Shown: positions 6,955 through 37,559 of the stretch, in pieces
Position numbering within the stretch: position 1 is the stretch's first letter
Layout: each line of letters begins with the position of its first letter
Assembly (NCBI RefSeq): GCF_000018545.1
Contig: NC_012586.1
Coordinates: 1-64,000 of the forward strand
From: Sinorhizobium fredii NGR234
Lineage (GTDB): Bacteria; Pseudomonadota; Alphaproteobacteria; Rhizobiales; Rhizobiaceae
DNA length: 64,000 nt
Reading direction: 5' to 3'
The notes under the pieces: model-generated
What the model saw: the letters and a program-made list of their open reading frames with translations, nothing else
The model's database searches: none
What the model was told of the DNA's origin: nothing
Made by a program: the position numbers and the translations under genes

Positions 6955-6970
6955 GTTGACAGCTGTCAAC
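6955..6970. promoter_or_regulatory. parS-like palindrome, GTTGACAGCTGTCAAC
   Basis: Perfect 16-bp palindrome fitting GTT-N4-GC-N4-AAC, between the VOC gene and the glycosyltransferase gene. The identity with the 8178 site extends beyond the palindrome on both sides (about 24 bp in all), so one may be a duplicate of the other. Could be a RepB site or an operator of a nearby gene. Confidence 0.65.
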
Positions 6971-6982
6971 TCGATCCGGCAA

Positions 6983-7819
6983 TCACTCGCGCCAATGCTC
7001 GGCCACCCAGCCGGTCGGTCGAATATAGTGGCGCAGATATCGGAACGGGTTTCTCTCTCGGCGCTCCGGAGAAAACAGGCCGCGGACGTGGCCGAGCGGC
7101 GTGGCGGCACGGCCCTTGTAGCCGAACTGACCGTCGATCGCGTGCTGCGGCAAAAGCCCGCGCGGGAAGAGAACGATCCGGGCATCGGCCGGCAGGCGCG
7201 GCGCCAGATAGTAGTTCAGCGGAAACGGCCAGCGGCAGTCCTGTCGGAAGTGCAGGACATGACGTCGCGGGAAGAACTTGGCCCCGCCCGGCGCGTTGCG
7301 CGTCACGAAGCGCTGCTCGAAGCGATACTCGTCGGCGACACCTTGGGGATCGGTCCGGAACTTCTCCTGCAACGGCACGAGCTTGCCGACCGGGAAGCGG
7401 AACACCGACGTCTGGCCGAGCCGCTCGAAGGGCGTCGTCTGGTTGACGGCGAGCACCACGTCATCCGGCCCGCCCGCCTCGAAGAAACTGTCGAGCGACC
7501 CGACGATGACGACGTCGAGGTCGAGGAACAGCACAGGTCCTTTGAGATTGCCAAGCTTCGGTCCCCAGAGCCGCGCCTTCGGCCAAATTCCCTTGGTGTT
7601 GGTCGGCATCTCGACATCGAGCGGCGGCAGGTCCTCGCAGAGAATTTCCGGGCGGAGGTTTTCGCGGCTGTCGGTGAAGCAGGTAAAGGTGAAAGGCGGC
7701 GTGATGTTGCGCGCCACCATGGCATAGAGCCTGTTGATGAAGGGGGCGCCATATTTGGTGCCCCAGCTGATGCAGATCACCTGCTTGACGCCGCCGCTTG
7801 CCGCCAGAACGCTTGCCAT
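6983..7819 (-). CDS. glycosyltransferase with DXD motif
   Basis: 278 aa from the ATG at 7819. The start is placed at MASVLAASGG because the upstream extension is arginine-rich with no family character. The sequence VICISWGTKYGAPFINRLYAMV and the motif VLFLDLDVVIVGSLDSFF (a DLD version of the DXD metal/nucleotide-sugar site) resemble a rhizobial family of GT8-like or capsular glycosyltransferases. HVLHFRQDCRWPFPLNYY lies toward the end. It probably extends the surface-sugar theme of the 4.2-6.4 kb genes. Donor and acceptor are unknown. Confidence 0.7.
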   Translation of the reverse strand: MASVLAASGGVKQVICISWGTKYGAPFINRLYAMVARNITPPFTFTCFTDSRENLRPEILCEDLPPLDVEMPTNTKGIWPKARLWGPKLGNLKGPVLFLDLDVVIVGSLDSFFEAGGPDDVVLAVNQTTPFERLGQTSVFRFPVGKLVPLQEKFRTDPQGVADEYRFEQRFVTRNAPGGAKFFPRRHVLHFRQDCRWPFPLNYYLAPRLPADARIVLFPRGLLPQHAIDGQFGYKGRAATPLGHVRGLFSPERRERNPFRYLRHYIRPTGWVAEHWRE

Positions 7820-8056
7820 CGATTGTCGCTTCTCTCGTATCCGTGCCTGCCGAAAGCGCCTTCCCGAACTGGCGTTCGGACCGCCGGAACCGATGGTGTG
7901 GCGGATCTGCAGACGATCGATCAAACCCCGGGTGACTTAAAGCAGGAATTGCCGACAGCTGGCAAGATGCGGCGCCGAGGCAGTATCGGGCGGACGCGGT
8001 TCGACACAATTGGCGCAAGGGGAGGGGCACATTTAGCGGCGCCCGGCGGAATCGAA

Positions 8057-8072
8057 GTTGACAGCTGTCAAC
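8057..8072. promoter_or_regulatory. parS-like palindrome, GTTGACAGCTGTCAAC
   Basis: Perfect palindrome identical in its 16 bases to the sites at 6955 and 8178, upstream of the RHE_PE00001-family gene. Confidence 0.65.
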
Positions 8073-8177
8073 GGAGGCAGACAGGACACCGCGGAATGAA
8101 GGGGCGCTTGGTTCGCGAATGCTTGGTCGCGCCCCGTAGATGCGACGGGCTGGGGGATGCCAGACCGGACAGATGCT

Positions 8178-8193
8178 GTTGACAGCTGTCAAC
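8178..8193. promoter_or_regulatory. parS-like palindrome, GTTGACAGCTGTCAAC
   Basis: Perfect palindrome 162 bp before the start of the RHE_PE00001-family gene and 121 bp after the previous copy. Its flanks match those of the 6955 site. Confidence 0.65.
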
Positions 8194-8354
8194 TCGATCA
8201 GCCACTGACCACGTCGCCCCGAAAAGCAGGGAACGCCGAGCGTTGGTGTCCGGAAGCAAGCTTCGCGAAATACCAGTGGGCAACGATCCGTCACCCTGTG
8301 ACGGAAGGAAATTGCGTGTTAGCTTCCGTATCAGCGAAAGGCTTCATCTTTATA

Positions 8355-9518
8355 ATGAGATACGAAACACCCGATCCGCTTCATCCAGCGCTGCTTCCGG
8401 GCCTGATCGCCGCGGAGGACGGGCTTGCTCGTCTCGATGAACGCGCCGCCCGCCACGCCGTTGCCGAGGGGTTTCGCGAACGCGGCCAGTTCTTCGACGC
8501 GGCGGCCGCCCTTTGGGTGGCGGGCGAACTCGTCCATGTCGAGGATCTCGTTTTACACGATTCGCACATGGATGCGCGAGCACCTTCTCACGAATTGACG
8601 ATCGCCCACGCCGTTTTGCGAGCCCGGCGCCGCCTCGACCTCGCCGAGCCGGGCTGGGCGCTAAGCCTCTCCGGGCTGAATGCGCTGCGGGGAGAGCAGG
8701 GGGCTGTTCCCGCCAATGGCGGCCGCTCGGAAGCGCCGGATCACCCGCCGGACCGCGAGGAAGCGGGCGAAGCTGCTGTTGATGGCGAGGACAATCCGCT
8801 CGCCAATGAATTCGCCGAACTCGATGCGGCCATGGCGCGTTCGCAGCAGCTCCTGGATTTTCATGCCGGCAGCCTCGCTGAAGCCGCGTCGCCGCTGTCT
8901 GCGGAGAGGATGGCGCCGGAGAGGACGGCGGAGCCGACCGGCCAGCTCGGCCTGCTTTTCGACGAGGATTGGGACGAGGCGGCCCGGCTCGATGCCTGGC
9001 GTGGGGTTCTCGCGGCGGCCGATCAGTTGCCGGCCTGCCTCGGCGCCGCGGTGCTCTTCGATGCCTGGGAAAGGATCGAGCCGCTGCGCCGCCAGCATTG
9101 GCTCGGGTCGCTTCTCGTCGGCGCCTATCTGCGCTGTCGCGGCAAGGTCGCCTCGCATGTACTCGGCTTCAATACGGGGCTGAAGACCATCCGTCACGAG
9201 CGGCGTCGCTCGAAGGACCGGTCGGCGCGCCTCAATGCCTTTCTCGAGGCGATGGCGGTCACCGCCGATCTCGGCCTCAAGGAGCTCGACCGGCTGTCGC
9301 TTTCAAGGACGCAGATGGAGATGCGGATCAAGGACCGCCGCTCCAACAGCAATCTTCCGGGGCTGATCGATCTCGTCCTGTCGCGGCCGATCGTCTCGAC
9401 GGCGATGATCGCCCGGCATCTCGGCGTTACCCCGCGCGGTGCTCTCAATCTGGTGCGCGAGCTGGGCGTGCGCGAAATCACCGGCAGGGGACGCTATCGC
9501 GGCTGGGGGGTGATCTGA
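8355..9518 (+). CDS. RHE_PE00001-family protein (DUF1612 plus C-terminal HTH)
   Basis: 387 aa, matching from memory a family named after the first gene of Rhizobium etli plasmid p42e, often encoded beside repABC modules. The N-terminal part (LARLDERAARHAVAEGFRER, then LWVAGELVHVEDLVLHD) is the DUF1612-like region. The C-terminus (SRPIVSTAMIARHLGVTPRGALNLVRELGVREITGRGRYRG) is a clear helix-turn-helix with wing. The function is unknown; DNA binding is inferred. ATG 8355 is chosen because an in-frame extension to 8157 would run through a parS-like site with no family sequence. Two parS-like palindromes precede it. Confidence 0.8.
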   Translation: MRYETPDPLHPALLPGLIAAEDGLARLDERAARHAVAEGFRERGQFFDAAAALWVAGELVHVEDLVLHDSHMDARAPSHELTIAHAVLRARRRLDLAEPGWALSLSGLNALRGEQGAVPANGGRSEAPDHPPDREEAGEAAVDGEDNPLANEFAELDAAMARSQQLLDFHAGSLAEAASPLSAERMAPERTAEPTGQLGLLFDEDWDEAARLDAWRGVLAAADQLPACLGAAVLFDAWERIEPLRRQHWLGSLLVGAYLRCRGKVASHVLGFNTGLKTIRHERRRSKDRSARLNAFLEAMAVTADLGLKELDRLSLSRTQMEMRIKDRRSNSNLPGLIDLVLSRPIVSTAMIARHLGVTPRGALNLVRELGVREITGRGRYRGWGVI

Positions 9519-9547
9519 CGACGCGCGTTATGGACGGTGCCGGTCGG

Positions 9548-10048
9548 CTACTTCCGCTGCAGATTGATCTCGCTGGTCACGACGCGGTTGCCCGAGCGCG
9601 GGTCGACGTCGACGGTCATCAGCTTCATGCCGTTCTCGCCCACCTTCTGCAGGGTCAGGTTGGCGCGGCGGTCGCCGTTGACCTCCCGCGCCCAGTGGAT
9701 GGTGAGATTGATGGCGCTGCCGCGCCGCTTGCCGGTGAGCGTCGACTTGCGGCCGCTCGGCCCGACATAGGTGCCGCTATAGTTGACACCTGTAAACTGA
9801 AGGTCGGCGCCGATCGAGCGCGATACGACGATGAGGCCGCGGCACGTGCCTCGCATCGACAGGGCGGCGTCGGTCGCTTGCGAATCGAAGTTGCAGGAGA
9901 CGTTGATCGGCGTCCTGTCGACGCGAACCCTGACCATGCCGCCCCCGGTCCATTGCCCCTCCAGAGATCCGAGAAAGGCCGATTCATCGGCCTGAGCCGT
10001 GCCCGCAAAAAGGAGCAGCATGGCTGCGACGAGAAGATGCCTGGTCAT
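9548..10048 (-). CDS. exported protein of unknown function
   Basis: 166 aa with a clear signal peptide (MTRHLLVAAMLLLFAGTAQA, probable cleavage after AQA). The mature part is beta-rich: SLEGQWTGGGMVRVR, then SCNF, GTCRG, GTYVGPSGRKSTLTGKRRGSAINLTIHW. It resembles a conserved periplasmic family of rhizobia whose role I do not know. Two cysteines (in SCNF and GTCRG) could form a disulfide. It converges on the RHE_PE00001-family gene. A degenerate parS-like sequence lies inside it (9782-9797). Confidence 0.75.
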   Translation of the reverse strand: MTRHLLVAAMLLLFAGTAQADESAFLGSLEGQWTGGGMVRVRVDRTPINVSCNFDSQATDAALSMRGTCRGLIVVSRSIGADLQFTGVNYSGTYVGPSGRKSTLTGKRRGSAINLTIHWAREVNGDRRANLTLQKVGENGMKLMTVDVDPRSGNRVVTSEINLQRK

Positions 10049-10206
10049 CGGTGAGTGCCTCCCCCAATCGTCCGAGGCTGGACGCGTTTCCCATCCGGTC
10101 CAACGCGCCGCCTCGATGGAAGTTCCCGGGCCGATCTTATCATCGAGCGCCGGCATGAAGGACACCGACTTAGGGTGGTGGTCGAGGGCCGATCCGCGTC
10201 CCAAAA

Positions 10207-10350
10207 CCGCCGCACACTTTTGGGCGACAGGCATTAGATCACGATGATTTTAGGTCGGATCGATCTAAAATCATGAACGTGATCGATTCTAATAGGTTAG
10301 AGGGGGATGCGGGCGGAAAACCGCACACACTTTTCCTCATCCCGCTCTAG
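10207..10350. repeat. Sinorhizobium-style mosaic intergenic repeat
   Basis: Two nested inverted repeats. ATGATTTTAG (10244-10253) pairs with CTAAAATCAT (10265-10274), flanked by GATCAC/GTGATC. Downstream, GAGGGGGATG pairs imperfectly with CATCCCGCTC. The word CCGCACACACTTTTCC matches, from memory, a common intergenic repeat of Sinorhizobium chromosomes and megaplasmids. It may provide transcription termination for the EamA gene on its right. Confidence 0.6.
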
Positions 10351-11210
10351 CTTGCGAATTTCTTCGCCCCCGCCACGCAGGCCACGATCGCCAGCGTGGC
10401 GGCGAGCATCGGCCAGCTCACCGTTTCATCGAGCAAGGTCGCCGCCAAAGCGAGCCCGAAGAAAGGCTGCAGCAACTGCAGTTGGCCGACGGCGACGATG
10501 CCGCCCTGGGCGAGGCCGCGATACCAGAAGATGAAGCCGATCAGCATGCTGAAGACGGAGACATAGCCGAGGCCGAACCAGGAGGCGGGGCGCAAGGCAT
10601 CGAAGCTCACCGGCATGGTGGCAAGCGCCAAGCCCAGCATGACGGGAAGCGACAGCACGAGAGCCCAGGAGATGACCTGCCAGCCGCCGAGCTTGCGCGA
10701 CAGCTTGGCGCCCTCGGCGTAACCGAGACCGCAGGCGAGAATGGCGGCGAGCATCAGGAGGTCGCCGACCGGCGAGGCGGCAAAGCCCTGGCGCAGCGCG
10801 AAGCCGACGACGATGGTGCTGCCGAGCCCGGAGAACAGCCAGAAGGCCGGCTTCGGCCGCTCGCCGCCGCGCAGCACGCCGAAGATCGCCGTTGCCAGTG
10901 GCAGCAGCCCGACGAAGACGATCGAATGGGCGGAGGTGACGTGCCTCAGCGCCAGCGCCGTCAACAGCGGGAAGCCGACCACCACCCCCAGCGAAACGAT
11001 GGCGAGCGGCAGAAGATCGCCACGCTCCGGCCGCTTCTCGCGAAAGACGACGAGCAGGCAAAAGGCCAGCAATCCGGCGATCGTGGCGCGGGCCACCGTC
11101 AGGAAGACCGGATCGAAATCCATCACCGCGATCCGCGTCGCCGGCAGCGAGCCCGAGAAAATCAGCACGCCCGCCATTCCATTCATCCAGCCGCTCGTAA
11201 TCCTGTCCAT
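10347..11210 (-). CDS. EamA/DMT-family transporter
   Basis: Ten-helix drug/metabolite transporter, 287 aa, with the two EamA repeats. The first ends near VFREKRPERGDL and the second starts near LFSGLGSTIVVGFALR. It probably exports an amino acid or related metabolite across the inner membrane. Start 11210 (MDRITSG) is preferred because GGAG lies 7 bases upstream. It faces a MocR-type regulator across 117 bp, so it is the likely target of that regulator. Confidence 0.87.
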   Translation of the reverse strand: MDRITSGWMNGMAGVLIFSGSLPATRIAVMDFDPVFLTVARATIAGLLAFCLLVVFREKRPERGDLLPLAIVSLGVVVGFPLLTALALRHVTSAHSIVFVGLLPLATAIFGVLRGGERPKPAFWLFSGLGSTIVVGFALRQGFAASPVGDLLMLAAILACGLGYAEGAKLSRKLGGWQVISWALVLSLPVMLGLALATMPVSFDALRPASWFGLGYVSVFSMLIGFIFWYRGLAQGGIVAVGQLQLLQPFFGLALAATLLDETVSWPMLAATLAIVACVAGAKKFAS

Positions 11211-11327
11211 GCGATGCTCCATTCTGTCCAATACCGGCATTGCTCTGTATCGGACCGGAGGACTGGCGCTTCCAGATACGGTGAAGTACAGTTGGCTAGA
11301 ACTGTCATGGTTTAAGGGCCGGTACGG

Positions 11328-12725
11328 ATGAGACCTCAGAGCGCAGATGCCGACGGCGAGACGCTGATCGCCAGGGTCATGGCGACGGTCCGGAACCGGA
11401 TATCCGGGCGCACGCTCACGCCCGGTGCGCGGCTGCCGTCGATCCGCGCTTCCGCGACGAGCCTGAAAGTCTCGAAGTCGACCGTGGTGGAGGCCTATGA
11501 GCGGCTTGCGGCGGAGGGACTGATCCGTTCGCGGCCCGGTTCCGGCTTCTTCGTCGCCGCGCCGCTCGCGCCCTTGTCGCTTGCCGAAATCGGTCCGCGC
11601 GTCGAGCGCGAGGTCGATCCCTTGTGGATCTCGCGCCAGGCGCTCGAGGCGGACGGCAACGTGCTGAAGCCCGGCTGCGGCTGGCTGCCCGCATCATGGA
11701 TGCCGGAAGAGGGATTGCGGCGTGCCTTGCGGGCGGTGGCGCGCGGCCGTGCCGCGACGCTCGTCGAATACGGCCCGCCGCTCGGGTTGCTGGCGCTGCG
11801 TCAACTGCTGGCGCGCCGCCTGGCGCAGCACGGCATCGAGGCCTCGCCGGAGCAGGTCATGCTGACGGAATCCGGCACCCAGGCGATCGACCTGCTCTGC
11901 CGATTTCTCGTCGAGCCGGGCGAAGCGGTGCTCGTCGACGATCCGTGCTACTTCAATTTTCACGCGCTGTTGCGGGCCCATCAGGCGAAAATCGTCGGCA
12001 TCCCTTACACGCCGGCCGGGCCCGACATCGACCGCTTTGCCGCGGCGCTTCAGGAGCACCGGCCGCGGCTCTACATCACCAATTCCGCCCTTCACAATCC
12101 GACCGGCGCAACGCTCTCGCCGCTTGTCGCCCATCGCCTCCTGAAGCTCGCCGAACAGTTCGGGCTGACCATCGTCGAGGACGACATCTTCGCCGATTTC
12201 GAGGAGGCGGCCGCGCCGCGGCTCGCCGCCTTCGACGGCCTCGAGCGGGTCGTGCATATCGGCAGCTTCTCGAAATCGCTGTCGGCAGCGGTGCGCTGCG
12301 GCTTCATCGCGGCGCCGCGCGGCTGGATCGAGCCGCTCACCGACCTCAAGATCGCCACGAGCTTCGGCGCTGCCGGATTTTCCGCCGAGCTGGTGCTGAC
12401 GCTGTTGAAGGATGGCAGCTATCGCAAGCACATGGAGACGGTGCGGCAGCGGCTGTCGCGGGCGATGGCCGGGACGATCGCCAGGCTCCGTCAGATCGGC
12501 ATCGAGCCCTGGATCGAGCCGCAGGCGGGCATGTTCGTCTGGTGTCGCCTGCCGGACGGCATCGACGCGGCGCAACTCGCCAGAAGGGCGCTTGCCGAAA
12601 ACATCGTGCTCGCCCCCGGCAACGTCTTCAGCCAGGCGCAGACGGCCGGCAATTTCCTGCGCTTCAACGTGGCACAGTGCGAGGACGAGCGGCTGTTTAG
12701 GGAGCTTGCGGGATTGATGCGGTAG
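11328..12725 (+). CDS. MocR-type GntR/aminotransferase transcriptional regulator
   Basis: 465 aa, the usual MocR length. An N-terminal GntR winged helix (LPSIRASATSLKVSKSTVVEAYERLAAEGLIRSRPGSGFFVA, about residues 38-80) is fused to a fold-type I aminotransferase domain. That domain shows NPTGAT, the EDDIF aspartate and the PLP lysine in GSFSKSLSAAVR. Such regulators sense pyridoxal phosphate or its amino-acid adducts. The divergent EamA exporter gene is the obvious target. Confidence 0.9.
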   Translation: MRPQSADADGETLIARVMATVRNRISGRTLTPGARLPSIRASATSLKVSKSTVVEAYERLAAEGLIRSRPGSGFFVAAPLAPLSLAEIGPRVEREVDPLWISRQALEADGNVLKPGCGWLPASWMPEEGLRRALRAVARGRAATLVEYGPPLGLLALRQLLARRLAQHGIEASPEQVMLTESGTQAIDLLCRFLVEPGEAVLVDDPCYFNFHALLRAHQAKIVGIPYTPAGPDIDRFAAALQEHRPRLYITNSALHNPTGATLSPLVAHRLLKLAEQFGLTIVEDDIFADFEEAAAPRLAAFDGLERVVHIGSFSKSLSAAVRCGFIAAPRGWIEPLTDLKIATSFGAAGFSAELVLTLLKDGSYRKHMETVRQRLSRAMAGTIARLRQIGIEPWIEPQAGMFVWCRLPDGIDAAQLARRALAENIVLAPGNVFSQAQTAGNFLRFNVAQCEDERLFRELAGLMR

Positions 12726-12790
12726 CCGCCGTGCAATGGGCGCGCGGGGGGCTACATTGATGGTTTTGTCATGCGCGCACAGGGTCGAAG

Positions 12791-13690: not shown

Positions 13691-13792
13691 GGATTAGTTT
13701 CGCTTAATCAGGATCAGTAGCATTAACTAGCCTGAATCCGCCCGCCGCGATAGCGGAGACGCTCACTTAAGTCAGGGAGCGCCGCGCTAGGC

Positions 13793-14401: not shown

Positions 14402-14457
14402 TTCCGACGACGTATCGTTCCGAAGGGACCGCCGCTCACTTCACAAGGATTCAAAGC

Positions 14458-15093: not shown

Positions 15094-15103
15094 GGAGAAG
15101 ATC

Positions 15104-18195: not shown

Positions 18196-20085
18196 TCACC
18201 CCTTCGGCATGCCCTCCGGCCGCAGATGTTTCTTCAGCGCCGCAATCCTGAAGATCGCATTGGCCGCGCCGTAACCGCGGTAGCCGCGTCGTTCGATGAT
18301 CTCGAAGAAGAAGCCCTCGCCATAGGTCGGGCTGTAGAGCTGGAAAAATTCGCCGCCCTCGTCGCGGTCGTAGAGGATGTTTTCCGCCTTCAGCCGCTCG
18401 ACCAGGTCGGCCTCCAGGCCGAAGCGGGCCTCGACGTCGTCATAATAATTGGGCGAGATCGGCAGAGCCCGAAAACCGTTCGCCCGGAGGGCCGCGGCGG
18501 TCGCGAAGATGTCGTCGGTGGCGAAGGCGAGGTGCTGGACGCCGGAGCCGAAGGTTTCGGCGATGAAGCGGCCGGCGAGCGTGTTGCGGTTTTCGGCGCC
18601 GTTCAGCGTCAGGCGCAGCGTGCCGGCGTCGTTTTCCACCACCTGGCTGCGGACGATGCCGGCCGGGTCGATGATGTCGACCATCGGCGTTTTCCGGGTG
18701 TCGAGCAACGACGTGTAGAAAAGTAGCCAGGTCAGCAACTCCTCGTATTTGACCGTCTGGGCGACGTGGTCGATGACAGTGAGGCCGGCCGGCGCCGCCG
18801 TGTCGTCATCGGTCACCGGCTCGAATTCGATCTCCCAGATTTTTGAGAGATCGGATTTCTCGTCGAGGAAATAGATGAGGCCGCCGCCGACGCCGCGGAT
18901 CGCCGGGACCATAAGCTCCCCCGGCCCGACCGCCTGCTCGAAGGGCTCGGCGCCAAGCGCGCGGGCCCGTTCCGCCGTCGCGGCGGCATCGTCGACCATC
19001 AGGCCGAAGGCATAGGCGGACGTGCCGTGCACCAGATAGGAAGCGCTGGCGAAGCCCTCGCGCTCGGTGTTGATCACCAGGTTGATCGCGCCCTGGCGGT
19101 AGACCAGCACCTGTTTCGTCCGGTGCCGCGCTGCTCTTCGAAAGCCGATCGTGCGGATCAGCGCTTCGAGCTCGACCGCTTCCTCTTCCGAGGCGGTGAA
19201 TTCGACGAAGGCGACGCCCTTCACATCGACACGCGGCGGCATCGCCGGGACCGGTAGCCGGATACCCGGTTCGGCGCGCTTCACCTGGTCGCCGAGATAG
19301 ATCAGCGAGCGGTAGCCGTCGACGGCGATGGCATTGGCATTGCCGCCGCGGAACTGGTCGTTGAAGATTTCGAGCGACAGATAGCCGTCATAGCCGGTCG
19401 CCGCCACGGCGCGGGTGAAGTCGGTCACCGGCAGGTCGCCCTCGCCCGGCATGTTGCGGAAATGACGGCTCCAGTAGAGGAGATCCATGTCGATCAGCGG
19501 CGCGTCGGCAAGCTGGACGATGAAGATTTTCTCCTTCGGAATCGAGCGGATCGAGTTGACCTCGATCTTGCGCGACAGCGTGTGGAAGCTGTCGAGGATC
19601 AGGCCGATATTCGGATGGTCGGCCCGCCGAACGATCTCCCAGGCGTCGCGATGATCGCTGATATGGCGGCCCCAGGCGAGCGCCTCATAGCCGACGCGCA
19701 AGCCGCGTTTGGCGGCGCGTTCGCCAAGCTCGCGGAAATCGGCGGCGGTCCGGTCGATGCCGCCGAGTGCCGCCGGCGAGACGTTGGAGCAGACGAGCAC
19801 GAGGTCGGTGCCGAGTTCCTGCATCAGGTCGAACTTGCGTTCGGCCCGGTCGAAGGTGCGCGTCCGCAGCGGTTCCGGCATTCCCTCGAAGTCGCGGAAC
19901 GGCTGGAACAGGCTGATCTCCAGACCGAAGTCGCGCACCATCCGGCCGACCTCGCGCGGGCTCTCGTCGAAGGCGAGGAAGTCGTTCTCGAATATCTCGA
20001 CGCCGTCGAAGCCGGCCTTGGCGATGGCGCGCAGCTTGTCGCTGAGGTCGCCGCTCAAGGAAACTGTCGCTATCGAGGTCTTCAT
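18196..20085 (-). CDS. quiC: 3-dehydroshikimate dehydratase, QuiC-type two-domain protein
   Basis: 629 aa fusion. The N-terminal half is a TIM-barrel sugar isomerase-like domain (IAKAGFDGVEIFENDFLAFD; LILDSFHTLSR; YLSLEIFNDQFR), which carries 3-dehydroshikimate dehydratase activity in this family. The C-terminal half is a 4-hydroxyphenylpyruvate dioxygenase-like VOC domain (VIDHVAQTVKYEELLTWLLFY; SGVQHLAFATDDIF; GFFFEIIERRGYRGYG). Product would be protocatechuate. It is the last gene of a minus-strand set with shikimate dehydrogenase and a TRAP transporter, supporting quinate/shikimate use. Start 20085 (MKTSIATVSL) fits the family. Confidence 0.85.
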   Translation of the reverse strand: MKTSIATVSLSGDLSDKLRAIAKAGFDGVEIFENDFLAFDESPREVGRMVRDFGLEISLFQPFRDFEGMPEPLRTRTFDRAERKFDLMQELGTDLVLVCSNVSPAALGGIDRTAADFRELGERAAKRGLRVGYEALAWGRHISDHRDAWEIVRRADHPNIGLILDSFHTLSRKIEVNSIRSIPKEKIFIVQLADAPLIDMDLLYWSRHFRNMPGEGDLPVTDFTRAVAATGYDGYLSLEIFNDQFRGGNANAIAVDGYRSLIYLGDQVKRAEPGIRLPVPAMPPRVDVKGVAFVEFTASEEEAVELEALIRTIGFRRAARHRTKQVLVYRQGAINLVINTEREGFASASYLVHGTSAYAFGLMVDDAAATAERARALGAEPFEQAVGPGELMVPAIRGVGGGLIYFLDEKSDLSKIWEIEFEPVTDDDTAAPAGLTVIDHVAQTVKYEELLTWLLFYTSLLDTRKTPMVDIIDPAGIVRSQVVENDAGTLRLTLNGAENRNTLAGRFIAETFGSGVQHLAFATDDIFATAAALRANGFRALPISPNYYDDVEARFGLEADLVERLKAENILYDRDEGGEFFQLYSPTYGEGFFFEIIERRGYRGYGAANAIFRIAALKKHLRPEGMPKG

Positions 20086-23625: not shown

Positions 23626-23635
23626 GGTCGCCTCC

Positions 23636-26880: not shown

Positions 26881-27084
26881 GTGTCACCTCACCGAAGTTC
26901 CCAAAGGCGAGCATTGCACGTCCCCGAGAACAAATAAAGAACATTATACTCGACAAGTCGGCTCGATGGCTTCGTTTGCTCCGTATGAATCTCGACTTTC
27001 CCGCACGGAGGGGGGAGGCGTGGGTGCGCCCGAATCGAATGAGAGCGCACCCCCTTTTCCTACCGGAACCCTCGCAAGTACACC

Positions 27085-28257: not shown

Positions 28258-28305
28258 TCCTGCATGGTTGCAGAACATAATTCGGCAGCAAGAGGAAATA
28301 ACGGA

Positions 28306-28830: not shown

Positions 28831-28831
28831 A

Positions 28832-29490: not shown

Positions 29491-29529
29491 TTTGGAGCTC
29501 CTTGTCCGCTTAGAGGCCGAGACGGTTAT

Positions 29530-29561
29530 GCCATCAAGATGGCTCGTGCCATCCTGATGGC
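29530..29561. promoter_or_regulatory. tandem operator-like palindromes before the VapB gene
   Basis: GCCATC-AA-GATGGC and GCCATC-CT-GATGGC occur with an 18-bp period, 40-70 bp upstream of the antitoxin start. Paired palindromes of this size are typical binding sites for ribbon-helix-helix antitoxins. Confidence 0.5.
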
Positions 29562-29694
29562 TCACGGGGTTCCCGAAGCGCGCGATACCGACGCTTGTCT
29601 CTTCGATTGCGGCGCACGCAAGGTCCAGGTCCACCGGCTCGTTTTAGTAATCGCCGATATTGCGGTAGAGTAGTCATCCGAGGGACTTCGTCCA

Positions 29695-31926: not shown

Positions 31927-32087
31927 GGGGAGTGCCGAACGGCGAGGCAGGCCATGCCGGTGTCGCCAAGCCCCGCAGGACTGGTATCATCGATTGATTA
32001 TGAAGCCGCAAGACATGTTCGGCTGTTCGCGACTCACGCCGGGCCACTGCTGCCTTGGCGATGCTCAGGGAGTGACAAGACAACGCC

Positions 32088-33680
32088 ATGCGCAACTTCG
32101 AGGATCCCGGCCGATCGCTGGCCGTTGCCCGTCACGGGATGGCGGCAACCTCGCATCCGGCCGCGACCCTGACGGCGATCGAGGTCCTGAAGGCAGGCGG
32201 CAACGCCGTCGATGCGGCGGTGGCGGCCGTCGCTGTGCAGTCGGTCGTCGAGGCGGGCTCGACCGGCGTCGGCGGGGATTGTTTTGCAATGATAGCGCTG
32301 GAAGGATCGACTGACATCCGCGCCTATAACGGCTCTGGCCGGGCGCCGGCCGGCCTGACCGGCGAGGCGTTGCGGGCCGAAGGGGTGGAGGCGATCGAGC
32401 GCTCAACGCCGCACGCGGTTACGGTTCCCGGAGCCGTCGATGCCTGGTGCCGCCTGTTGCGCGACTTCGGCCGGATGCCAATCGCCGAGGTCCTTCAGCC
32501 GGCGATCGCGATGGCACGCGAGGGCTACGTGCTGACGCCGCGCGTCGCCGCCGATCTTGGCCTGCAGCGCGATCTCCTGGCGGGGGATCCGACCGCCCGG
32601 GCCACCTTCCTAGTGGAGGGAGAGGCGCCGCCGGTCGGCAGCATCCAGCACCAGCCCCTGCTCGCCGATACCCTCGACGCGATCGCGCACGAGGGTCGGG
32701 ACGCCTTCTATGGCGGTGCCGTGGCAGCGGACATGGTTGACTATCTGCGCGGCCTCGGCGGCCGTCACAGCCTCGAGGATTTCGGCAGCGCCCAGGGAGA
32801 CTATGTGACACCGATCTCCACGACCTATCGCGGCCGAACCGTCTACGAATGCCCGCCGAACGGTCAGGGCGTCGTCGCCCTCCTCATCCTGAACATCCTT
32901 GCGCGTTTCTCGCTGTCCAAGGACCCGTTCGCCATCGACGATCTGCATGTCCTCCTCGAGGCGACCCGGCTCGCCTACGCCGCGCGTGACGCGATGGTCG
33001 CCGATCCGACCGGTTCGGACAAGGCCGTCGAGCACATGCTGTCGAGCACGCTTGCCGACCGCCTCGTCAGCGCCATCTCCGTCGATCGGATCGCCGAGCC
33101 GCTGCCGTCCTTCGACACGGTCGAGCACAAGGACACCGTCTATCTTTGCGTGGTGGATCGAGACCGCAACGCAGTCAGCTTCATCAATTCGATCTTCAGC
33201 GCCTATGGCAGCGGGCTCATGGCACCGCGCTCCGGCGTGTTGTTCCACAATCGGGGCCAGAGCTTTTCGCTTGTGGCAGGGCATCCGAACGAGGTCGGCC
33301 CGCGCAAGCGGCCGATGCACACGATCATTCCCGGAATGGTCGCCGAGGCCGGCCGCGTGGTCATGCCGTTCGGCGTCATGGGCGGTCACTACCAGGCGAT
33401 GGGTCATGCCCATCTGTTGTCCCGGCTCTACGATTGCGGCCTCGATCTTCAGACGGCCATCGACCTGCCGCGCCTCTTCCCATTGCCCGCCACCGCGACG
33501 GTGGAAGCCGAGGCAGCCATCCGCACCCGCCTCGGCGCCGAGCTCGAACGCCGCGGCTTCAAGATTGAGTCGCCCCGCATCGCCATCGGCGGCGCGCAGG
33601 CCATCCGGATCGACTGGGAGCGCGGCGTCCTGATCGGAGCGTCCGACCCCCGCAAGGATGGGATGGCGTTGGGGTATTAG
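32088..33680 (+). CDS. gamma-glutamyltransferase-family protein
   Basis: 530 aa Ntn-hydrolase. GMAATSHPAATLTAIEVLKAGGNAVDAAVAA and GSTGVGGDCFAMI open the large subunit. The processing/catalytic threonine is T350 in HKDTVYLCVVDRDRNAVSFINSIF. GSGLMAPRSGVLFHNRGQSF and FGVMGGHYQAMGH follow. No signal peptide is seen, so it is probably cytoplasmic, as in the rhizobial acylase-like branch. Substrate could be a gamma-glutamyl or other amide. Confidence 0.88.
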   Translation: MRNFEDPGRSLAVARHGMAATSHPAATLTAIEVLKAGGNAVDAAVAAVAVQSVVEAGSTGVGGDCFAMIALEGSTDIRAYNGSGRAPAGLTGEALRAEGVEAIERSTPHAVTVPGAVDAWCRLLRDFGRMPIAEVLQPAIAMAREGYVLTPRVAADLGLQRDLLAGDPTARATFLVEGEAPPVGSIQHQPLLADTLDAIAHEGRDAFYGGAVAADMVDYLRGLGGRHSLEDFGSAQGDYVTPISTTYRGRTVYECPPNGQGVVALLILNILARFSLSKDPFAIDDLHVLLEATRLAYAARDAMVADPTGSDKAVEHMLSSTLADRLVSAISVDRIAEPLPSFDTVEHKDTVYLCVVDRDRNAVSFINSIFSAYGSGLMAPRSGVLFHNRGQSFSLVAGHPNEVGPRKRPMHTIIPGMVAEAGRVVMPFGVMGGHYQAMGHAHLLSRLYDCGLDLQTAIDLPRLFPLPATATVEAEAAIRTRLGAELERRGFKIESPRIAIGGAQAIRIDWERGVLIGASDPRKDGMALGY

Positions 33681-33885
33681 CCGATCTCGGGCACCGCAAG
33701 TCCGCTCCGAAGGAGCGATCGTCGCAGCGTGTGGTACCCTGAAGCCGTGAAGCTGGATACGCTCTCCTTCGCCAATTTGAATTCGCATGGCTTCGCATGT
33801 ATGGATCCAGGGACGAGTCTTGACCGGGCGACCTGCGTGGAGGACGGGTAGGGAGCGCGGAGGATTTGCCTCGACGCACTAGGTC

Positions 33886-34467
33886 GTGAACGAACGGGAG
33901 ATCAGGCTGGACTTGGACGAAGAGACGCAGCAATCCGACACGCCGACGCCGCGCATGTTCGCATGGGCGCGCAATTCGGCCATCTATCGCCTCGAACGGC
34001 GGATGCATACGGAAAAGCAGCTCTTCGACGCCATTTCGCGAAAGGCCAGGCAGGAGTTCGACAAAATCAGCGACGCGCAGGTCAAGGCGCTCGCCGACTC
34101 CGCCGTGAAGTTCGCCTCTGACAACCGGGCGCTCGACGATACGGCCTATGCCGAAATCAAGGCCCGTTCGGGCATGCGTGGCGGCAAATCGAAACGTGCA
34201 ATCGCGCAGAATTTGTCGCAGAAGGGTGTCGCCAAGGATACGGTCGCGGCCGCCGTCGCCGAGGCGGATGACCTTTACGCGGCCCTCGTCCTTGCCCGAA
34301 AGCGCGCCTTCGGGCCGTTCCGGAAGTGTGACTCGGACGAAAAGCGAAGGTCGAAGGAGCTCTCCGCCTTTGCCAGGGCAGGCTTCGGCTTCGAGATCGG
34401 CAAAACGGTTTTCGAGATGTCGGTCGACGATGCCGAGGAGGCATTGGCCGCCGGCCGCCATTTCTAG
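33886..34467 (+). CDS. RecX-family regulatory protein
   Basis: 193 aa from a GTG at 33886. RecX-type three-helix repeats are visible: NSAIYRLERRMHTEKQLFDAISRKA, LDDTAYAEIKARSGMRGGKSKRAIAQNLSQKGVAKDTVAAAV and FARAGFGFEIGKTVF. RecX proteins modulate RecA filaments, but plasmid copies away from recA like this one are common in rhizobia and may act otherwise. No clear ribosome site precedes the GTG, so the start is tentative. Confidence 0.82.
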   Translation: MNEREIRLDLDEETQQSDTPTPRMFAWARNSAIYRLERRMHTEKQLFDAISRKARQEFDKISDAQVKALADSAVKFASDNRALDDTAYAEIKARSGMRGGKSKRAIAQNLSQKGVAKDTVAAAVAEADDLYAALVLARKRAFGPFRKCDSDEKRRSKELSAFARAGFGFEIGKTVFEMSVDDAEEALAAGRHF

Positions 34468-34507
34468 CCGTCTGCCGGCACGATCTCTTTCGGCCGAAAA
34501 GCCTCGA

Positions 34508-34975
34508 TCAGGCTCGCCTCAGCGCCGGGTCGTCGAGTGCCGGATTGTAGAAGAGCGAAAGCGTCAGGCTTCGCGCGATACGCTCCGCCGTGGCCATGAA
34601 CCAGACCTTCGCCTCATTGTTGGGGGCAATATCCTCAAGCGTTGCAGCAAAAAGCTCCAGCCATTTCGGGAAAAGCTCCGGCGTCATGTTGGCGACGCCA
34701 AGATGCGCCTGGACCGGCTTTCCCCCGTAGGCGCCACTGCGGAAGGCAATGGCGGACCAGAAGCTCTTCATCTTCTCCATATGTTCAGGCCAGCGTCCCG
34801 AAAGCCTGGCGTCGAAGACCGGCCCGAGTTCGGGATGTGCCAGCACGCGGCCATAAAATGTATCGACCAGGGTGCCGATGAAGGCGGCGTCGACCCCGAT
34901 CGCGCTCATCTCTTCTTCCGCGCTTTCGCGGATCGCTGCTACATGAGCAGCGCGGCCCTGCAATTCGTTGTTCAT
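34508..34975 (-). CDS. group III truncated hemoglobin
   Basis: 155 aa. FIGTLVDTFYGRVLAHPELGPVF, HMEKMKSFWSAIAFRSGAYGGKPVQAHLGV (with the proximal histidine in AHLGV) and FPKWLELFAATLED are typical of group III truncated globins. ATG 34975 follows GGAG by 6 bases. Proposed roles in the family are NO or oxygen chemistry under low oxygen. Confidence 0.88.
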   Translation of the reverse strand: MNNELQGRAAHVAAIRESAEEEMSAIGVDAAFIGTLVDTFYGRVLAHPELGPVFDARLSGRWPEHMEKMKSFWSAIAFRSGAYGGKPVQAHLGVANMTPELFPKWLELFAATLEDIAPNNEAKVWFMATAERIARSLTLSLFYNPALDDPALRRA

Positions 34976-35349
34976 TTCAAGCTCCGGCTTTGCTGGCCTC
35001 ATATAAGCGTTGCAAATGCGGCATCAAAGACGGTAACCGCCGATTGCGGCAATCTGTCAGACGAGGTCGGGTTCTGCGTCCCGCGCAATATCGCTTGCCT
35101 GCTTGCTTCGGCTCCGGACGAGACGCTCGTGGCAGCACGAATACCGGCTTGAGCAACGGACGCTCGCGCAGAGCCTAGACCGGCGGCGGCCTTCGTTGCG
35201 TCCGATGTCAACCTACCGTTGAAAAAAAGGCGCCAGGAGCGAGGCGGCGGGAAAGAGAAGACGGCGCATGCCGTCATGGTGGCCGATATAGCATGCGGCC
35301 CCGCGCCTGGGGAGGCACGGGGCCGCAACGGGTTGCAAGAGAGGCCTTC
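34976..35349. other. 374-bp gap with the tctA-side hairpin
   Basis: No gene is supported. It holds the promoter of the globin gene and, at 35295-35326, a strong hairpin beyond the end of tctA. Confidence 0.45.
35295..35326 (-). terminator. hairpin after tctA
   Basis: GCGGCCCCG (35295-35303) and CGGGGCCGC (35318-35326) form a perfect 9-bp GC stem 24 bp past the tctA stop. No T-run follows on the minus strand, so it may slow or protect rather than terminate on its own. Confidence 0.5.
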
Positions 35350-36858
35350 TCAATCCTCTTCGACGAAGACCTCCTCGCGCTTCGCCTTGACGCTCGGCAG
35401 GAACACGACGACGAGCACGATGGCAGCGATCAGCAAGAGGACGGCGCTGATCGGCCGGGTGACGAAGGTGGTCGGGTCGCCGCGCGACAGGATCATGGCG
35501 CGCCGAAGATTCTCCTCGAGCAGCGGCCCGAGCACGAAGCCGAGCAAGAGCGGTGCCGGCTCGCAGCGCAGCTTCAGGAGCAGGTAGCCGATGAGCCCGA
35601 AGAAGGCGACGGCGTAGAGGTCGAAGACGTTGGAATTGACGCTGTAGACCCCGATCGAGCAGAAAGCCATGATGATCGGGAAGAGCACGAAATAGGGGAT
35701 CTTCAGAAGCTTCACCCAGAGCCCGATCAGCGGCAGGTTCAGGACGACGAGCATCAGGTTGCCGATCCACATCGAGGCGATGATGCCCCAGAAGAGCGCC
35801 GGCTGTTCGACCGCGACATTCGGGCCGGGCACGATGCCCTGGATGATCATCGCGCCGATCATCAGCGCCATGACCGGGTTGGCCGGAATACCGAGGGTGA
35901 GTAGCGGGATGAACGAGGTCTGGGCGCCGGCATTGTTGGCGCTTTCCGGGCCGGCGACGCCGGCAATGGCGCCGCGGCCGAATTCCTCGGGCCGGTCGGA
36001 GAGGCGCTTTTCCACCGTGTAGGAGGCGAAGGCGGCGAGGATGGCGCCGCCGCCGGGCAGCACGCCGAGCGCCGAGCCGATCACCGTGCCGCGCACGACA
36101 GGCGCGAACATCCGCTTGAAATCCTCTTTCGTCGGCAGAAGCTCGCTGACCTTCGCCATCAGGACTTCGCGGGTCTTTTCGCTTTCGAGGTTGCGCAGGA
36201 TCTCGGCGATGCCGAAGACGCCGACCGCGAGCGCCACGAAGTTGAGGCCGTCGGCATACTCGCGAATGCCCAGCGTGAAGCGCGGCGTGCCGGTATAGAT
36301 GTCGGTGCCGACGAGGCCGAGCAGCAGGCCGAGCGCCACCATGGCGAGCGCCTTGACGACCGAGCCGTGCGCCAGCGCGACGGAGGAGACGAGGCCGACG
36401 ATCATCAGCGAGAAATATTCGGCGGCGCCGAATTCCAGCGCGATTTCGGTGAGCGGCGGCGCGAAGAGGGCGACGAGGAAGGTCGAGACCGTGCCGGCGA
36501 AGAACGAGCCGAGCGCTGCGACCGCCAGCGCCGTGCCGGCGCGGCCGTTGCGGGCCATCTGGTAGCCGTCGATGGCGGTGACGGCGGAGGAGGATTCGCC
36601 CGGCATGTTGATCAGGATCGCCGTGGTCGAGCCGCCATATTGGGCGCCGTAATAGATGCCGGCGAGCATGATCAGCGACGAGACCGGCTCGAGCTGGAAG
36701 GTGATCGGCAGCAGCATGGCGATCGTCGCCGTGGCGCCGATGCCGGGAAGCACGCCGATCAGCGTGCCGAGGAGCACGCCGATCAGGCAGAAGAGGAGGT
36801 TCGCCGGCGAAGCGGCGGTGGCAAAGCCGAGGGCAAGATTGCTGAAGAGATCCATCAT
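35350..36858 (-). CDS. tctA: tripartite tricarboxylate transporter large permease TctA
   Basis: 502 aa, about 12 membrane spans. GTLIGVLPGIGATATIAMLLPITF and GIYYGAQYGGSTTAILINMPGESSSAVTAIDGYQMARNGRAGTAL are TctA signatures, and VLPGGGAILAAFASYTVEKRL is the second repeat. It works with TctB (7 bp upstream) and the TctC binding protein. Citrate or another carboxylate is the likely substrate. Confidence 0.93.
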   Translation of the reverse strand: MMDLFSNLALGFATAASPANLLFCLIGVLLGTLIGVLPGIGATATIAMLLPITFQLEPVSSLIMLAGIYYGAQYGGSTTAILINMPGESSSAVTAIDGYQMARNGRAGTALAVAALGSFFAGTVSTFLVALFAPPLTEIALEFGAAEYFSLMIVGLVSSVALAHGSVVKALAMVALGLLLGLVGTDIYTGTPRFTLGIREYADGLNFVALAVGVFGIAEILRNLESEKTREVLMAKVSELLPTKEDFKRMFAPVVRGTVIGSALGVLPGGGAILAAFASYTVEKRLSDRPEEFGRGAIAGVAGPESANNAGAQTSFIPLLTLGIPANPVMALMIGAMIIQGIVPGPNVAVEQPALFWGIIASMWIGNLMLVVLNLPLIGLWVKLLKIPYFVLFPIIMAFCSIGVYSVNSNVFDLYAVAFFGLIGYLLLKLRCEPAPLLLGFVLGPLLEENLRRAMILSRGDPTTFVTRPISAVLLLIAAIVLVVVFLPSVKAKREEVFVEED

Positions 36859-36865
36859 CCGTCTC

Positions 36866-37327
36866 CTAGAACCGGACCCAGGGGCCGAAGCGTTCGAACG
36901 GCAGGTTGAGGCCGTAGCTGAACACCGCGACCGAGAAGATCGCCAGCCCCAGCGAGACGGCCAGCGCCCAGAGCGGCTTCATGCGATGCGAAGCGAAACA
37001 AGCGATCAGCGCCGTGAAGAACACGGCCGGCACGAAGCCCAGTCCCCGTACCGTCAGCCCGAAGAAGATCGGCGCCGGCAGGATGAAGAGCATGCCGCGG
37101 ATGGCGATCGGCCCCATCGGCTCGTGGTTCACCCGGGCCGACTGCACCAGGATGACGACGCCGAGCAGCGTCAGCACGACGGAGAGCAGCAGCGGGAAAT
37201 AGCCGGGGCCCATCCGGAAGGCGGTGCCGAGCTCGAGCCCGAAGGACTGCCAGGCGAAGAAAAGGCCAACGGCCGTCAGGATACTCCCGCACAGCGCGTT
37301 GGTGGCATCGAAGGAGATGGCTTTCAT
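36866..37327 (-). CDS. tctB: tripartite tricarboxylate transporter small subunit TctB
   Basis: 153 aa with four membrane helices. LGTAFRMGPGYFPLLLSVVLTLLGVVIL is the family signature. It sits directly before tctA, the standard order. Confidence 0.88.
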   Translation of the reverse strand: MKAISFDATNALCGSILTAVGLFFAWQSFGLELGTAFRMGPGYFPLLLSVVLTLLGVVILVQSARVNHEPMGPIAIRGMLFILPAPIFFGLTVRGLGFVPAVFFTALIACFASHRMKPLWALAVSLGLAIFSVAVFSYGLNLPFERFGPWVRF

Positions 37328-37422
37328 CTTGTCCCCATTTTATCGTTCGAACGCGGCCGCCAGCGTCCTGATGGCTTGGCCCTGATGTCTGGGCGATGTC
37401 CTCGCATTTTGCCGGCTCAAGC

Positions 37423-37530
37423 TCCTGCATGTTTCCTCGAAACGGAGCCGGTTCAAGGATAAGAACATGAAGGACTTCAAAGTGCTACAGCGAAACGTCT
37501 TGCGTCTGGAAAGACGCGCGGCGCCGTAGC
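37423..37530 (+). repeat. Sinorhizobium-type intergenic element, copy 2
   Basis: Shares blocks with copy 1 at 24269-24370 in the opposite orientation: CTGCATGTTTCC, GTTCAAGGAT, TCAAAGTGCTACAGCG, and GTCTGGAAAGACGCGCGGCGCCGTAG. More diverged than copy 1 in the first hairpin. Confidence 0.6.
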
Positions 37531-37543
37531 GGGCCGAGAGCAA

Positions 37544-37559
37544 GTTGACGGCTGTCAAC
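37544..37559. promoter_or_regulatory. parS-like palindrome, GTTGACGGCTGTCAAC
   Basis: Differs from the 6955/8057/8178 sites at one base (G for A at position 7), but still fits GTT-N4-GC-N4-AAC. It is about 29 kb from the nearest other copy. Confidence 0.55.

What the first reader, a model, noticed from the sequence alone, without database searches (positions are those of the whole stretch)
6955..37559. Array of parS-like 16-mers far beyond repABC
GTTGACAGCTGTCAAC occurs perfectly at 6955, 8057 and 8178, and with one change at 37544. All four fit the GTT-N4-GC-N4-AAC consensus reported for RepB centromeres, yet they lie 3 to 34 kb past repC rather than at repABC. A random exact 16-mer is not expected even once in 64 kb. 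If RepB binds them, this plasmid has a dispersed, chromosome-like centromere region that could support RepB spreading. Otherwise they are operators of an unknown regulator.
Basis: partly seen in the sequence, partly recalled or inferred. Interest (0 to 1): 0.75.

Follow-up and report, generated by a model that had tools for sequence, protein, structure and literature searches.

The report
Remote centromeres of an orphan partition system
The repeated 16-letter palindromes near the origin of this large symbiont plasmid look like the centromeres of a second DNA-segregation system whose genes sit about 214,000 bases away, so this well-known type of bacterial mini-chromosome probably carries two partition systems rather than one.

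Summary
In detail: GTTGACAGCTGTCAAC is exact at 6955, 8057 and 8178, with one change at 37544. Within one change it occurs once more in the 6.89-Mb genome, at C2:2222857 on the same replicon.

That fifth site lies inside repB2 of an orphan repA2B2 locus without repC, 214 kb from the cluster. The repABC operon in the window has a different palindrome, GTTGTCCGCGGACAAC, upstream of repA.

In 247 Rhizobiaceae genomes the 16-mer pattern tracks RepB2 (62 both, 3 RepB2 only, 5 pattern only, 177 neither); of 24 genomes with a RepB1-like but no RepB2-like protein, 2 have it. GTTGTCCGCGGACAAC tracks RepB1 (21/16/0/210). In other genera the site usually lies within 2 kb of repB2 (21 of 25), in complete repABC operons where I looked. 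In Sinorhizobium the layout is conserved.

RepB2 binding and a partition role are inferred, not tested. Each ingredient has a precedent (pAMI4 remote parS; SCP1 dual ParABS); the combination was not found in the searched literature.

The parts
78..93 (.). class I site GTTGTCCGCGGACAAC, putative parS of the repABC-encoded RepB1
   Evidence: Unique in the genome within 1 change. Present upstream of repA1 in 16 of 16 relatives whose upstream DNA was in the fetched stretch, of 20 fetched. Co-occurs with RepB1 in 247 genomes: 21 both, 16 RepB1 only, 0 site only, 210 neither.
212..1441 (+). repA1
   Evidence: NCBIfam TIGR03453, 637.6 bits against cut-off 348.45
1445..2449 (+). repB1
   Evidence: NCBIfam TIGR03454, 403.7 bits against cut-off 201.5
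2455..2501 (-). antisense ctRNA between repB and repC
   Evidence: Rfam RF00489, 57.4 bits against 50
2606..3919 (+). repC1, replication initiator
   Evidence: NCBIfam NF040974, 513.8 bits against 150
6955..6970 (.). class II site 1, exact GTTGACAGCTGTCAAC, putative parS of orphan RepB2
   Evidence: A class II site lies on this (repC) side of the neighbouring gene in 20 of 20 relatives examined, in G018 with one change.
6983..7819 (-). gene flanked by class II sites (no Pfam match; I read it as glycosyltransferase-like, which no call confirms)
   Evidence: Found between class II sites in 20 of 20 relatives examined, in G004 and G016 in pieces. Also flanked in S. meliloti 1021 pSymB.
8057..8072 (.). 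class II site 2, exact
8178..8193 (.). class II site 3, exact
8355..9518 (+). DUF1612 + HTH_13 gene, neighbour; not the likely owner of the sites
   Evidence: Pfam PF07756 and PF11972. Of 50 genomes with this gene but no RepB2, 2 have the pattern.
9782..9797 (+). two-change look-alike GTTGACACCTGTAAAC inside a coding region; status unclear
   Evidence: same letters in the same gene in relatives G006 and G021
37544..37559 (.). class II site 4, GTTGACGGCTGTCAAC, between tctB (36866-37327) and tctC (37684-38661)
   Evidence: A class II site (in G012 with one change) lies in the same gap in 17 fetched relative loci, 12 of them fetched because of the site; in S. meliloti 1021 and in 3 of 4 Ensifer-like genomes it lies between tctC and tctA.

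Best explanation
The 16-mers are the centromere sites (parS2) of a second ParABS partition system on this replicon. Its genes, repA2 and repB2, form an orphan locus without repC at about C2:2221909-2224299. Its centromere cluster lies 214 kb away, beside the replication module repABC1. RepB2 is expected to bind the cluster as a ParB-type DNA clamp and RepA2 to move it, so that the origin region of this pSymB-type chromid is segregated by RepA2B2-parS2 alongside RepA1B1-parS1. The site inside repB2 probably gives feedback control or is the ancestral parS at the 5' end of repB. Shown here: the sites, the orphan genes, their conservation and the RepB2/site pairing. Inferred: binding, partition function and the feedback role.
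For: (1) Genome-wide the 16-mer within one change is found only at the four window sites and inside repB2. (2) Same 247 genomes, pattern GTTGACANCTGTCAAC on either strand: RepB2 and pattern 62/3/5/177; inside the 12 genera that vary for RepB2, 20 both, 2 RepB2 only, 0 pattern only, 21 neither. (3) Double dissociation: RepB2 without RepB1, 49 of 52 have the pattern and 0 of 52 class I; RepB1 without RepB2, 2 of 24 have the pattern and 9 of 24 class I. (4) Linkage outside Sinorhizobium and the Ensifer-like genus: among the 25 RepB2 genomes whose site positions the capped list shows, 21 have one within 2 kb of repB2. Of 20 such loci fetched with flanks, chosen by me partly because a site was near, 16 have an exact copy within 2 kb, all beside a repC. 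(5) In own + 20 Sinorhizobium relatives the site inside repB2 is the only 16-column stretch of the gene with at least 15 invariant columns, in an indel-rich region (flanks 0.67 and 0.77 conserved), using minority codons TTG, ACA and mostly CCT. (6) repA2 and repB2 are under purifying selection, median dN/dS 0.105 and 0.115 over 20 comparisons with own, and score far above the RepA and RepB cut-offs. (7) 33 of 33 genus genomes carry GTTGACNGCNGTCAAC and 32 of 33 the orphan-type RepB2 (the miss is 70% complete). (8) The identical 16-mer is bound by RepB of pAMI4, and the locus holding three of its copies is needed for full stability (PMC9040568).
Against: No binding or stability data. The repB2 site is GTTGACA[C/T]CTGTCAAC, off the strict GC centre of the consensus; in G022 it has one further change. 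In four Ensifer-like genomes repB2 carries no such site. In 4 of the 25 listed genomes the site is not near repB2. pAMI4 RepB is overall slightly closer to RepB1 (40.6%) than to RepB2 (37.5%); at 11 columns separating the two classes it agrees with RepB2 at 5, with RepB1 at 2 (one a shared gap) and with neither at 4. RepB2 of G003 has one internal stop. Three genomes have RepB2 without the pattern and five the reverse; two of the five (G201, G247) carry GTTGACAGATGTCAAC about 50 bases upstream of a RepB that is 44-47% identical to RepB1. In some searches at most 8 candidates per genome were scored, so absences depend on that first look. Genomes are related, so Fisher p-values overstate certainty; the within-genus count is the safer figure.
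Confidence: 0.83

Rival explanations
1. RepB1 of the local repABC binds both palindromes, so the 16-mers are extra parS sites of one system.
For: The 16-mers cluster downstream of repC1 in own + 20 relatives examined and match the general repABC consensus. In the four Ensifer-like genomes they lie on both sides of repABC1.
Against: RepB1-like without RepB2-like genomes lack the pattern in 22 of 24; RepB2-like without RepB1-like have it in 49 of 52. A different palindrome tracks RepB1. In other genera the site lies close to repB2.
Confidence: 0.06
2. RepB2 does bind the sites, but mainly for something other than plasmid partition: origin tethering to other replicons, loading of SMC, or gene regulation; partition is done by RepAB1.
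For: PMC13342612 (passages) reports ori-ori contacts between chromosome, pSymA and pSymB in S. meliloti and says that ParB and RepB mediate such contacts in Agrobacterium fabrum. On Streptomyces SCP1 only one of two functional ParABS systems is crucial for maintenance in the laboratory (PMC13245405 abstract).
Against: Conserved pairing of RepA2 with RepB2 and a multi-site cluster at the origin are the usual layout for partition; no direct test either way.
Confidence: 0.25
3. The sites are operators of a regulator, for example the adjacent DUF1612/HTH_13 protein.
For: Two sites lie in the gap upstream of that gene, and across the family the gene and the pattern are loosely associated (41 both, 49 gene only, 26 pattern only, 131 neither).
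Against: Of 50 genomes with the gene but no RepB2, only 2 have the pattern; of 25 with RepB2 but no such gene, 23 have it. The fourth site lies among tct transporter genes. Other regulators were not tested.
Confidence: 0.02
4. The whole RepA2B2-parS2 set is a non-functional relic of an old replicon fusion.
For: No repC match beside repA2B2 in own, 20 Sinorhizobium relatives and 4 Ensifer-like loci; G003 repB2 has an internal stop.
Against: Purifying selection and near-invariant sites over own + 20 relatives; presence in 32 of 33 genomes.
Confidence: 0.05

Closest known systems
pAMI4 3parS locus of Paracoccus aminophilus (PMC9040568)
   Same: Identical 16-mer; three copies outside the repABC operon, 11.5 kb downstream of repC; bound by RepB and needed for full stability there. 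I saw the three copies in NC_022049 at 425025, 425289 and 425483.
   Different: In pAMI4 the same 16-mer also lies in its own repABC operon and one RepB serves all sites. Here the local repABC has a different palindrome and the paired RepB is encoded 214 kb away without repC. The sites here are not in a long AT-rich non-coding region (gap 7820-8354 is 60% GC, window 63%).
Allorhizobium vitis chromosome 2 / Neorhizobium pNCHU2750a remote parS pairs (PMC9040568)
   Same: pNCHU2750a RepB is closest to RepB2 (57% identity, 41% to RepB1), and the record has the exact 16-mer at 91064 and 92006, about 87 kb past repC, and the 37544-type variant at 18331. A. vitis chromosome 2 was not held.
   Different: In pNCHU2750a repA and repB are still joined to repC; here repC is missing beside repA2B2 and the sites sit beside another repABC. 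I read 100 kb of that record and did not search it for a second repAB.
Dual ParABS of Streptomyces plasmid SCP1 (PMC13245405)
   Same: Two type I partition systems with distinct parS sites on one replicon.
   Different: Unrelated host and plasmid type. I read the abstract, outline and one results section; how far its sites lie from its genes was not established.
S. meliloti pSymA multiple parS upstream of repA (as described in PMC9040568 and PMC13274422)
   Same: Several parS copies at a rhizobial megaplasmid origin.
   Different: All six are upstream of repA and tied to the pSymA repABC.

Membership tests
repABC-type (type Ia) ParABS partition system | RepA ATPase of the family | tested here: met
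   RepA2: TIGR03453 648.1 bits against 348.45; Walker-type GGSGKTT stretch in the translation
repABC-type (type Ia) ParABS partition system | RepB/ParB DNA-binding protein of the family | tested here: met
   RepB2: TIGR03454 375.5 bits against 201.5; sequence match to solved ParB, Spo0J and Noc chains
repABC-type (type Ia) ParABS partition system | 16-bp palindromic site fitting GTT-N4-GC-N4-AAC | tested here: met
   The four window sites fit; the site inside repB2 lacks the GC centre
repABC-type (type Ia) ParABS partition system | site and RepB co-occur specifically | tested here: met
   62/3/5/177 over 247 genomes; 20/2/0/21 within varying genera
repABC-type (type Ia) ParABS partition system | repC in the same operon | tested here: not met
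   No match to the window's RepC beside repAB2 in own, 20 Sinorhizobium relatives or 4 Ensifer-like loci; RepC beside RepB2 in other genera was found at 33-50% identity
repABC-type (type Ia) ParABS partition system | main sites in or next to the repAB operon | tested here: not met
   One imperfect site inside repB2; the exact sites are 214 kb away
repABC-type (type Ia) ParABS partition system | RepB2 binds the site | not testable with these tools
   needs gel shift or ChIP-seq
repABC-type (type Ia) ParABS partition system | site gives stability in cis and incompatibility | not testable with these tools
   needs plasmid stability and incompatibility assays
pAMI4-like 3parS locus | same site present in the local repABC operon | tested here: not met
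   local operon carries GTTGTCCGCGGACAAC instead
pAMI4-like 3parS locus | long AT-rich non-coding region | tested here: not met
   gap 7820-8354 is 0.5 kb and 60% GC
dual ParABS replicon (SCP1-like) | two ParAB pairs with distinct palindromes on one replicon | tested here: met
   repAB1 + class I and repAB2 + class II on C2
dual ParABS replicon (SCP1-like) | both systems functional | not testable with these tools
   no binding or stability assay available

The most novel reading that the evidence does not exclude
The pSymB-type chromid is a merged replicon with two centromeres: when repABC1 took over as origin next to the old parS2 cluster, the original partition genes lost repC and came to lie 0.1-0.6 Mb away (13 relatives), yet RepA2B2-parS2 remains the main segregation machine of the origin, while the repABC operon's own parS mainly regulates repABC. 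This would be a ParABS system whose genes and centromere have stayed apart on one replicon across a genus.
Probability: 0.35. Interest if true: 0.82.

Novelty: new variant of a known kind. Interest (0 to 1): 0.7.

Why it matters
pSymB-type chromids are models for how multipartite bacterial genomes are copied and inherited, and vectors have been built on the pSymB repABC (PMC6576745, passages). If a second, split ParABS system acts at their origin, models of pSymB segregation, incompatibility and origin-origin contacts lack a component. The finding gives a direct way to ask why a replicon keeps two centromeres, and supplies a pair of related RepB proteins with distinct sites for studying ParB specificity. 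It also shows how searching only for copies of the local parS, the method described in PMC9040568, would miss a foreign set.

Tried and rejected
Considered and rejected: chance; even spread over replicons; ownership by RepB1; ownership by the adjacent DUF1612/HTH_13 gene. Specificity residues: 11 alignment columns separate class I from class II RepB proteins, but they also separate the two clades, so they cannot be read as specificity positions; pAMI4 RepB is mixed there. The RepB tree puts the class II rows (orphan and complete-operon RepB2 together) apart from the class I rows, but pAMI4 and the C1 RepB sit on long branches and their place is unsafe. I looked for some of the window's repABC1 neighbours (tct, glycosyltransferase-like, epimerase, EamA and GntR genes) beside repABC2 in other genera, to see whether repABC1 replaced repABC2 in place; none were seen in the 20 loci. 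In that call the DUF1612 query was in the wrong frame (27 residues) and says nothing; it was corrected, on Sinorhizobium loci only. Sequence searches did not settle which system is dominant. No structure was predicted. Three site look-alikes elsewhere in relatives (L145-L147) had none of the queried genes beside them and were left as probable chance.

Literature: no paper found that assigns a site or function to the orphan repAB of pSymB-type replicons. Searches: in an open-licence library only, so subscription papers (including MacLellan 2006 and the S. meliloti genome papers, which I know only as citations or from recall) were not read. Seen as passages only: PMC2783167, PMC1557990, PMC13274422, PMC13342612, PMC4492784, PMC6576745, PMC4207669, PMC6090056, PMC5114275. 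PMC9040568: parts 1-3 of 6 and passages. PMC13245405: abstract, outline, one section and a term search.
Full report
WHAT WAS CLAIMED AND CHECKED. The finding said that GTTGACAGCTGTCAAC occurs exactly at 6955, 8057 and 8178 and with one change at 37544, that all fit the RepB centromere consensus, and that they lie 3 to 34 kb past repC. All of this is correct. Shuffled sequence expects 0.09 matches at up to three changes against 5 seen. The consensus also matches at 78, upstream of repA, with a different palindrome, GTTGTCCGCGGACAAC.

WHERE ELSE IN THE GENOME. The window is the start of contig C2 (2,430,033 bases); C1 is 536,165 bases and the genome 6,891,900. From memory these lengths are those of Sinorhizobium fredii NGR234 (pNGR234b, pNGR234a); no call names the host. 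Within one change the 16-mer occurs at the four window sites and at C2:2222857 (GTTGACAGGTGTCAAC; on the other strand GTTGACACCTGTCAAC), and nowhere on C1 or C3. GTTGTCCGCGGACAAC is unique within one change.

A SECOND PARTITION LOCUS. Searching the genome with the window's RepB found a second RepB on C2 at 2222098-2222901, minus strand, at 46% identity, besides one on C1. The gene, repB2 (L008:9909-10970), follows a repA2 (L008:10974-12299), and the four RepC matches in the genome lie elsewhere. RepA2 and RepB2 score far above the curated cut-offs for plasmid RepA and RepB. The fifth 16-mer-like site lies inside the 5' part of repB2. The distance from there to the site at 6955 round the circle is 214,116 bases.

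CONSERVATION IN THE GENUS. All 33 genomes of the genus carry GTTGACNGCNGTCAAC, 2 to 6 copies each, against 0 or 1 for the reversed control pattern. RepB2 at 79-100% identity is in 32 of 33; the exception, G030, is 70% complete. I fetched both loci for 20 of the 32 relatives. In 20 of 20 there are at least two exact 16-mers between 0.4 and 3.9 kb after repC1 (in the window 3.0 to 4.3 kb). In 16 of 16 with upstream DNA in the stretch, the other palindrome lies upstream of repA1. In 20 of 20 the repB2 gene carries GTTGACA[C/T]CTGTCAAC starting at base 83-107. A further relative, G022, has one more change in that site. Class II sites flank the same gene in 20 of 20. The outlying site, 37544 here, sits in the gap between tctB and tctC in 17 relative loci: five seen in stretches fetched for another reason (in G012 with one change), twelve in stretches fetched because of the site. 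In G001 all three copies are in the cluster, so that genome lacks it by this pattern. In G006 the tct genes lie about 31 kb on the other side of repABC1 and still hold the site. S. meliloti 1021 pSymB shows the same layout: sites at 54646, 53601 and 37182 (between tctC and tctA), the repA1 palindrome at 58913, and orphan repA2B2 at 1611541-1613811 with its internal site at 1612854. Where cluster and repB2 were on one contig in 13 relatives, they are 100 to 562 kb apart.

WHY THE SITE IN repB2 IS A DNA SIGNAL. In a codon alignment of own + 20 relatives, the 16-mer is the only 16-column stretch of the gene with at least 15 invariant columns, while the 60 columns on either side average 0.67 and 0.77 conserved and are full of insertions and deletions. 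Its codons TTG, ACA and CCT are minority choices in these genes (0.10, 0.06 and 0.07 of their amino acid); its GTC and AAC are majority choices (0.53, 0.64), and three relatives have TCT for CCT. Median dN/dS is 0.105 for repA2 and 0.115 for repB2.

WHO OWNS THE 16-MER. I put four searches to the same draw of 247 family genomes. RepB2-like protein (E at most 1e-75) and the pattern GTTGACANCTGTCAAC: 62 both, 3 RepB2 only (G049, G108, G230), 5 pattern only (G059, G147, G201, G204, G247), 177 neither. RepB1-like protein and its palindrome: 21 both, 16 RepB1 only, 0 palindrome only, 210 neither. RepB1-like without RepB2-like: 24 genomes, 2 with the pattern, 9 with the class I palindrome. RepB2-like without RepB1-like: 52 genomes, 49 with the pattern, 0 with class I. 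Relatedness inflates such tables, so I also counted inside the 12 genera that vary for RepB2: 20 both, 2 RepB2 only, 0 pattern only, 21 neither. In the protein searches at most 8 candidates per genome were scored.

WHAT RepB2 LOOKS LIKE ELSEWHERE. The list of positions is capped. Among the 25 RepB2 genomes it shows outside Sinorhizobium and the Ensifer-like genus g66, 21 have a site within 2 kb of repB2; G128, G121, G243 and G266 do not. I fetched 20 RepB2 loci from these other genera with flanks (of 56 genomes with a match), partly because a site was known to be near. All 20 hold a RepC match downstream of repB2. Sixteen have an exact 16-mer within 2 kb of repB2: upstream of repA, at the repA-repB junction, in repB or in repC. 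Four do not: G128, G121, G243 and G088. G121 and G243 have exact 16-mers elsewhere on the same contig, 70 and 292 kb off, and G121 a one-change copy upstream of repA2; G128 has one-change copies 71-86 kb off; G088, whose locus is cut by the contig end, has two copies that the capped list did not place. Four Ensifer-like genomes have the same split as Sinorhizobium: repA2B2 without repC, and exact 16-mers around repABC1; in three of the four one lies between tctA and tctC. Their repB2 lacks the internal site. That g66 is Ensifer is my reading; no call names it.

COMPARISON WITH WHAT IS KNOWN. In PMC9040568 (parts 1-3 of 6 read, plus passages) the identical 16-mer is the parS of Paracoccus aminophilus pAMI4: RepB binds it in gel shifts, a locus of three copies 11.5 kb past repC is needed for full stability, and remote pairs occur in A. 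vitis chromosome 2 and relatives. For one of those relatives, pNCHU2750a, RepB is of the RepB2 type (57%), with exact 16-mers at 91064 and 92006 and the 37544-type variant at 18331. So that published case and the present one share the same RepB-site pairing. That paper looked for copies of whatever palindrome lies in the local repABC region (methods passage), which would not reveal a second set. PMC2783167 (passages) counts five repAB operons without repC among six faulty operons; the word pSymB does not occur in its main text. PMC13245405 (abstract, outline and one section) reports dual ParABS on SCP1 and says plasmids with several systems are more common than recognised. PMC13274422 (passages) describes the repABC origin of a pSymB-like replicon; the passages I saw mention no second repAB there. 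I found no paper giving the orphan repAB of these replicons a site or role (open-licence library only).

MECHANISM. Most likely RepB2 loads at the cluster beside repABC1 and RepA2 segregates it, giving the chromid two partition systems at one origin, with the second encoded far away. The site within repB2 may be a feedback site or the ancestral parS at the 5' end of repB, a common place in Rhizobiales according to PMC9040568. A simple history is that a replicon with repA2B2C lost repC2 when repABC1 became the origin close to the old centromere. I looked for shared neighbours of the two loci that would show this and found none, so the history is inference. Binding, clamp spreading, partition and which system dominates are untested.

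RESULTS AGAINST. The off-consensus centre of the repB2 site, its absence in Ensifer-like repB2, the extra change in G022, the internal stop in G003 repB2, the eight discordant genomes, the four listed genomes whose sites are not near repB2, G201 and G247 where a RepB1-like RepB has GTTGACAGATGTCAAC just upstream, and pAMI4 RepB being slightly closer overall to RepB1 all leave room for error. Overlap of specificity between RepB1 and RepB2 cannot be excluded from sequence.

Noticed in passing
relatives G007:C1 and G021:C1 (loci L021, L034): repABC1 and repAB2 lie on contigs of 6.48 and 6.13 Mb, larger than the replicon elsewhere, which suggests chromosome-chromid cointegrates (or assembly joins) that kept both partition systems.
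   Followed up: no
window 8355-9518 and relatives: The DUF1612/HTH_13 gene lies within about 2-6 kb of repB or repC on several other repABC replicons (own C1:8136, G180 C2 and C4, G274, G112, G114, G194, G157, G075), as if it were a regular companion of repABC modules.
   Followed up: partly
C2:147141-147338 (locus L014): A 66-residue fragment 53% identical to RepC lies about 143 kb past repC1, possibly a remnant of another replication module.
   Followed up: no
G003 repB2 (C2:1270410-1271465): One in-frame TAA inside repB2; it was the only row flagged with a stop.
   Followed up: no
L118:998-3838 (S. meliloti ml46 pSymB): In S. meliloti ml46 the orphan repAB2 lies near a gene annotated as DNA translocase FtsK; in the window's genome I read the neighbouring frames as sugar-catabolism genes.
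   Followed up: no
L125:3273 and L126:3267 (G247, G201): A RepB1-like operon has GTTGACAGATGTCAAC at the repA-repB junction, hinting at a further RepB-site pairing.
   Followed up: no
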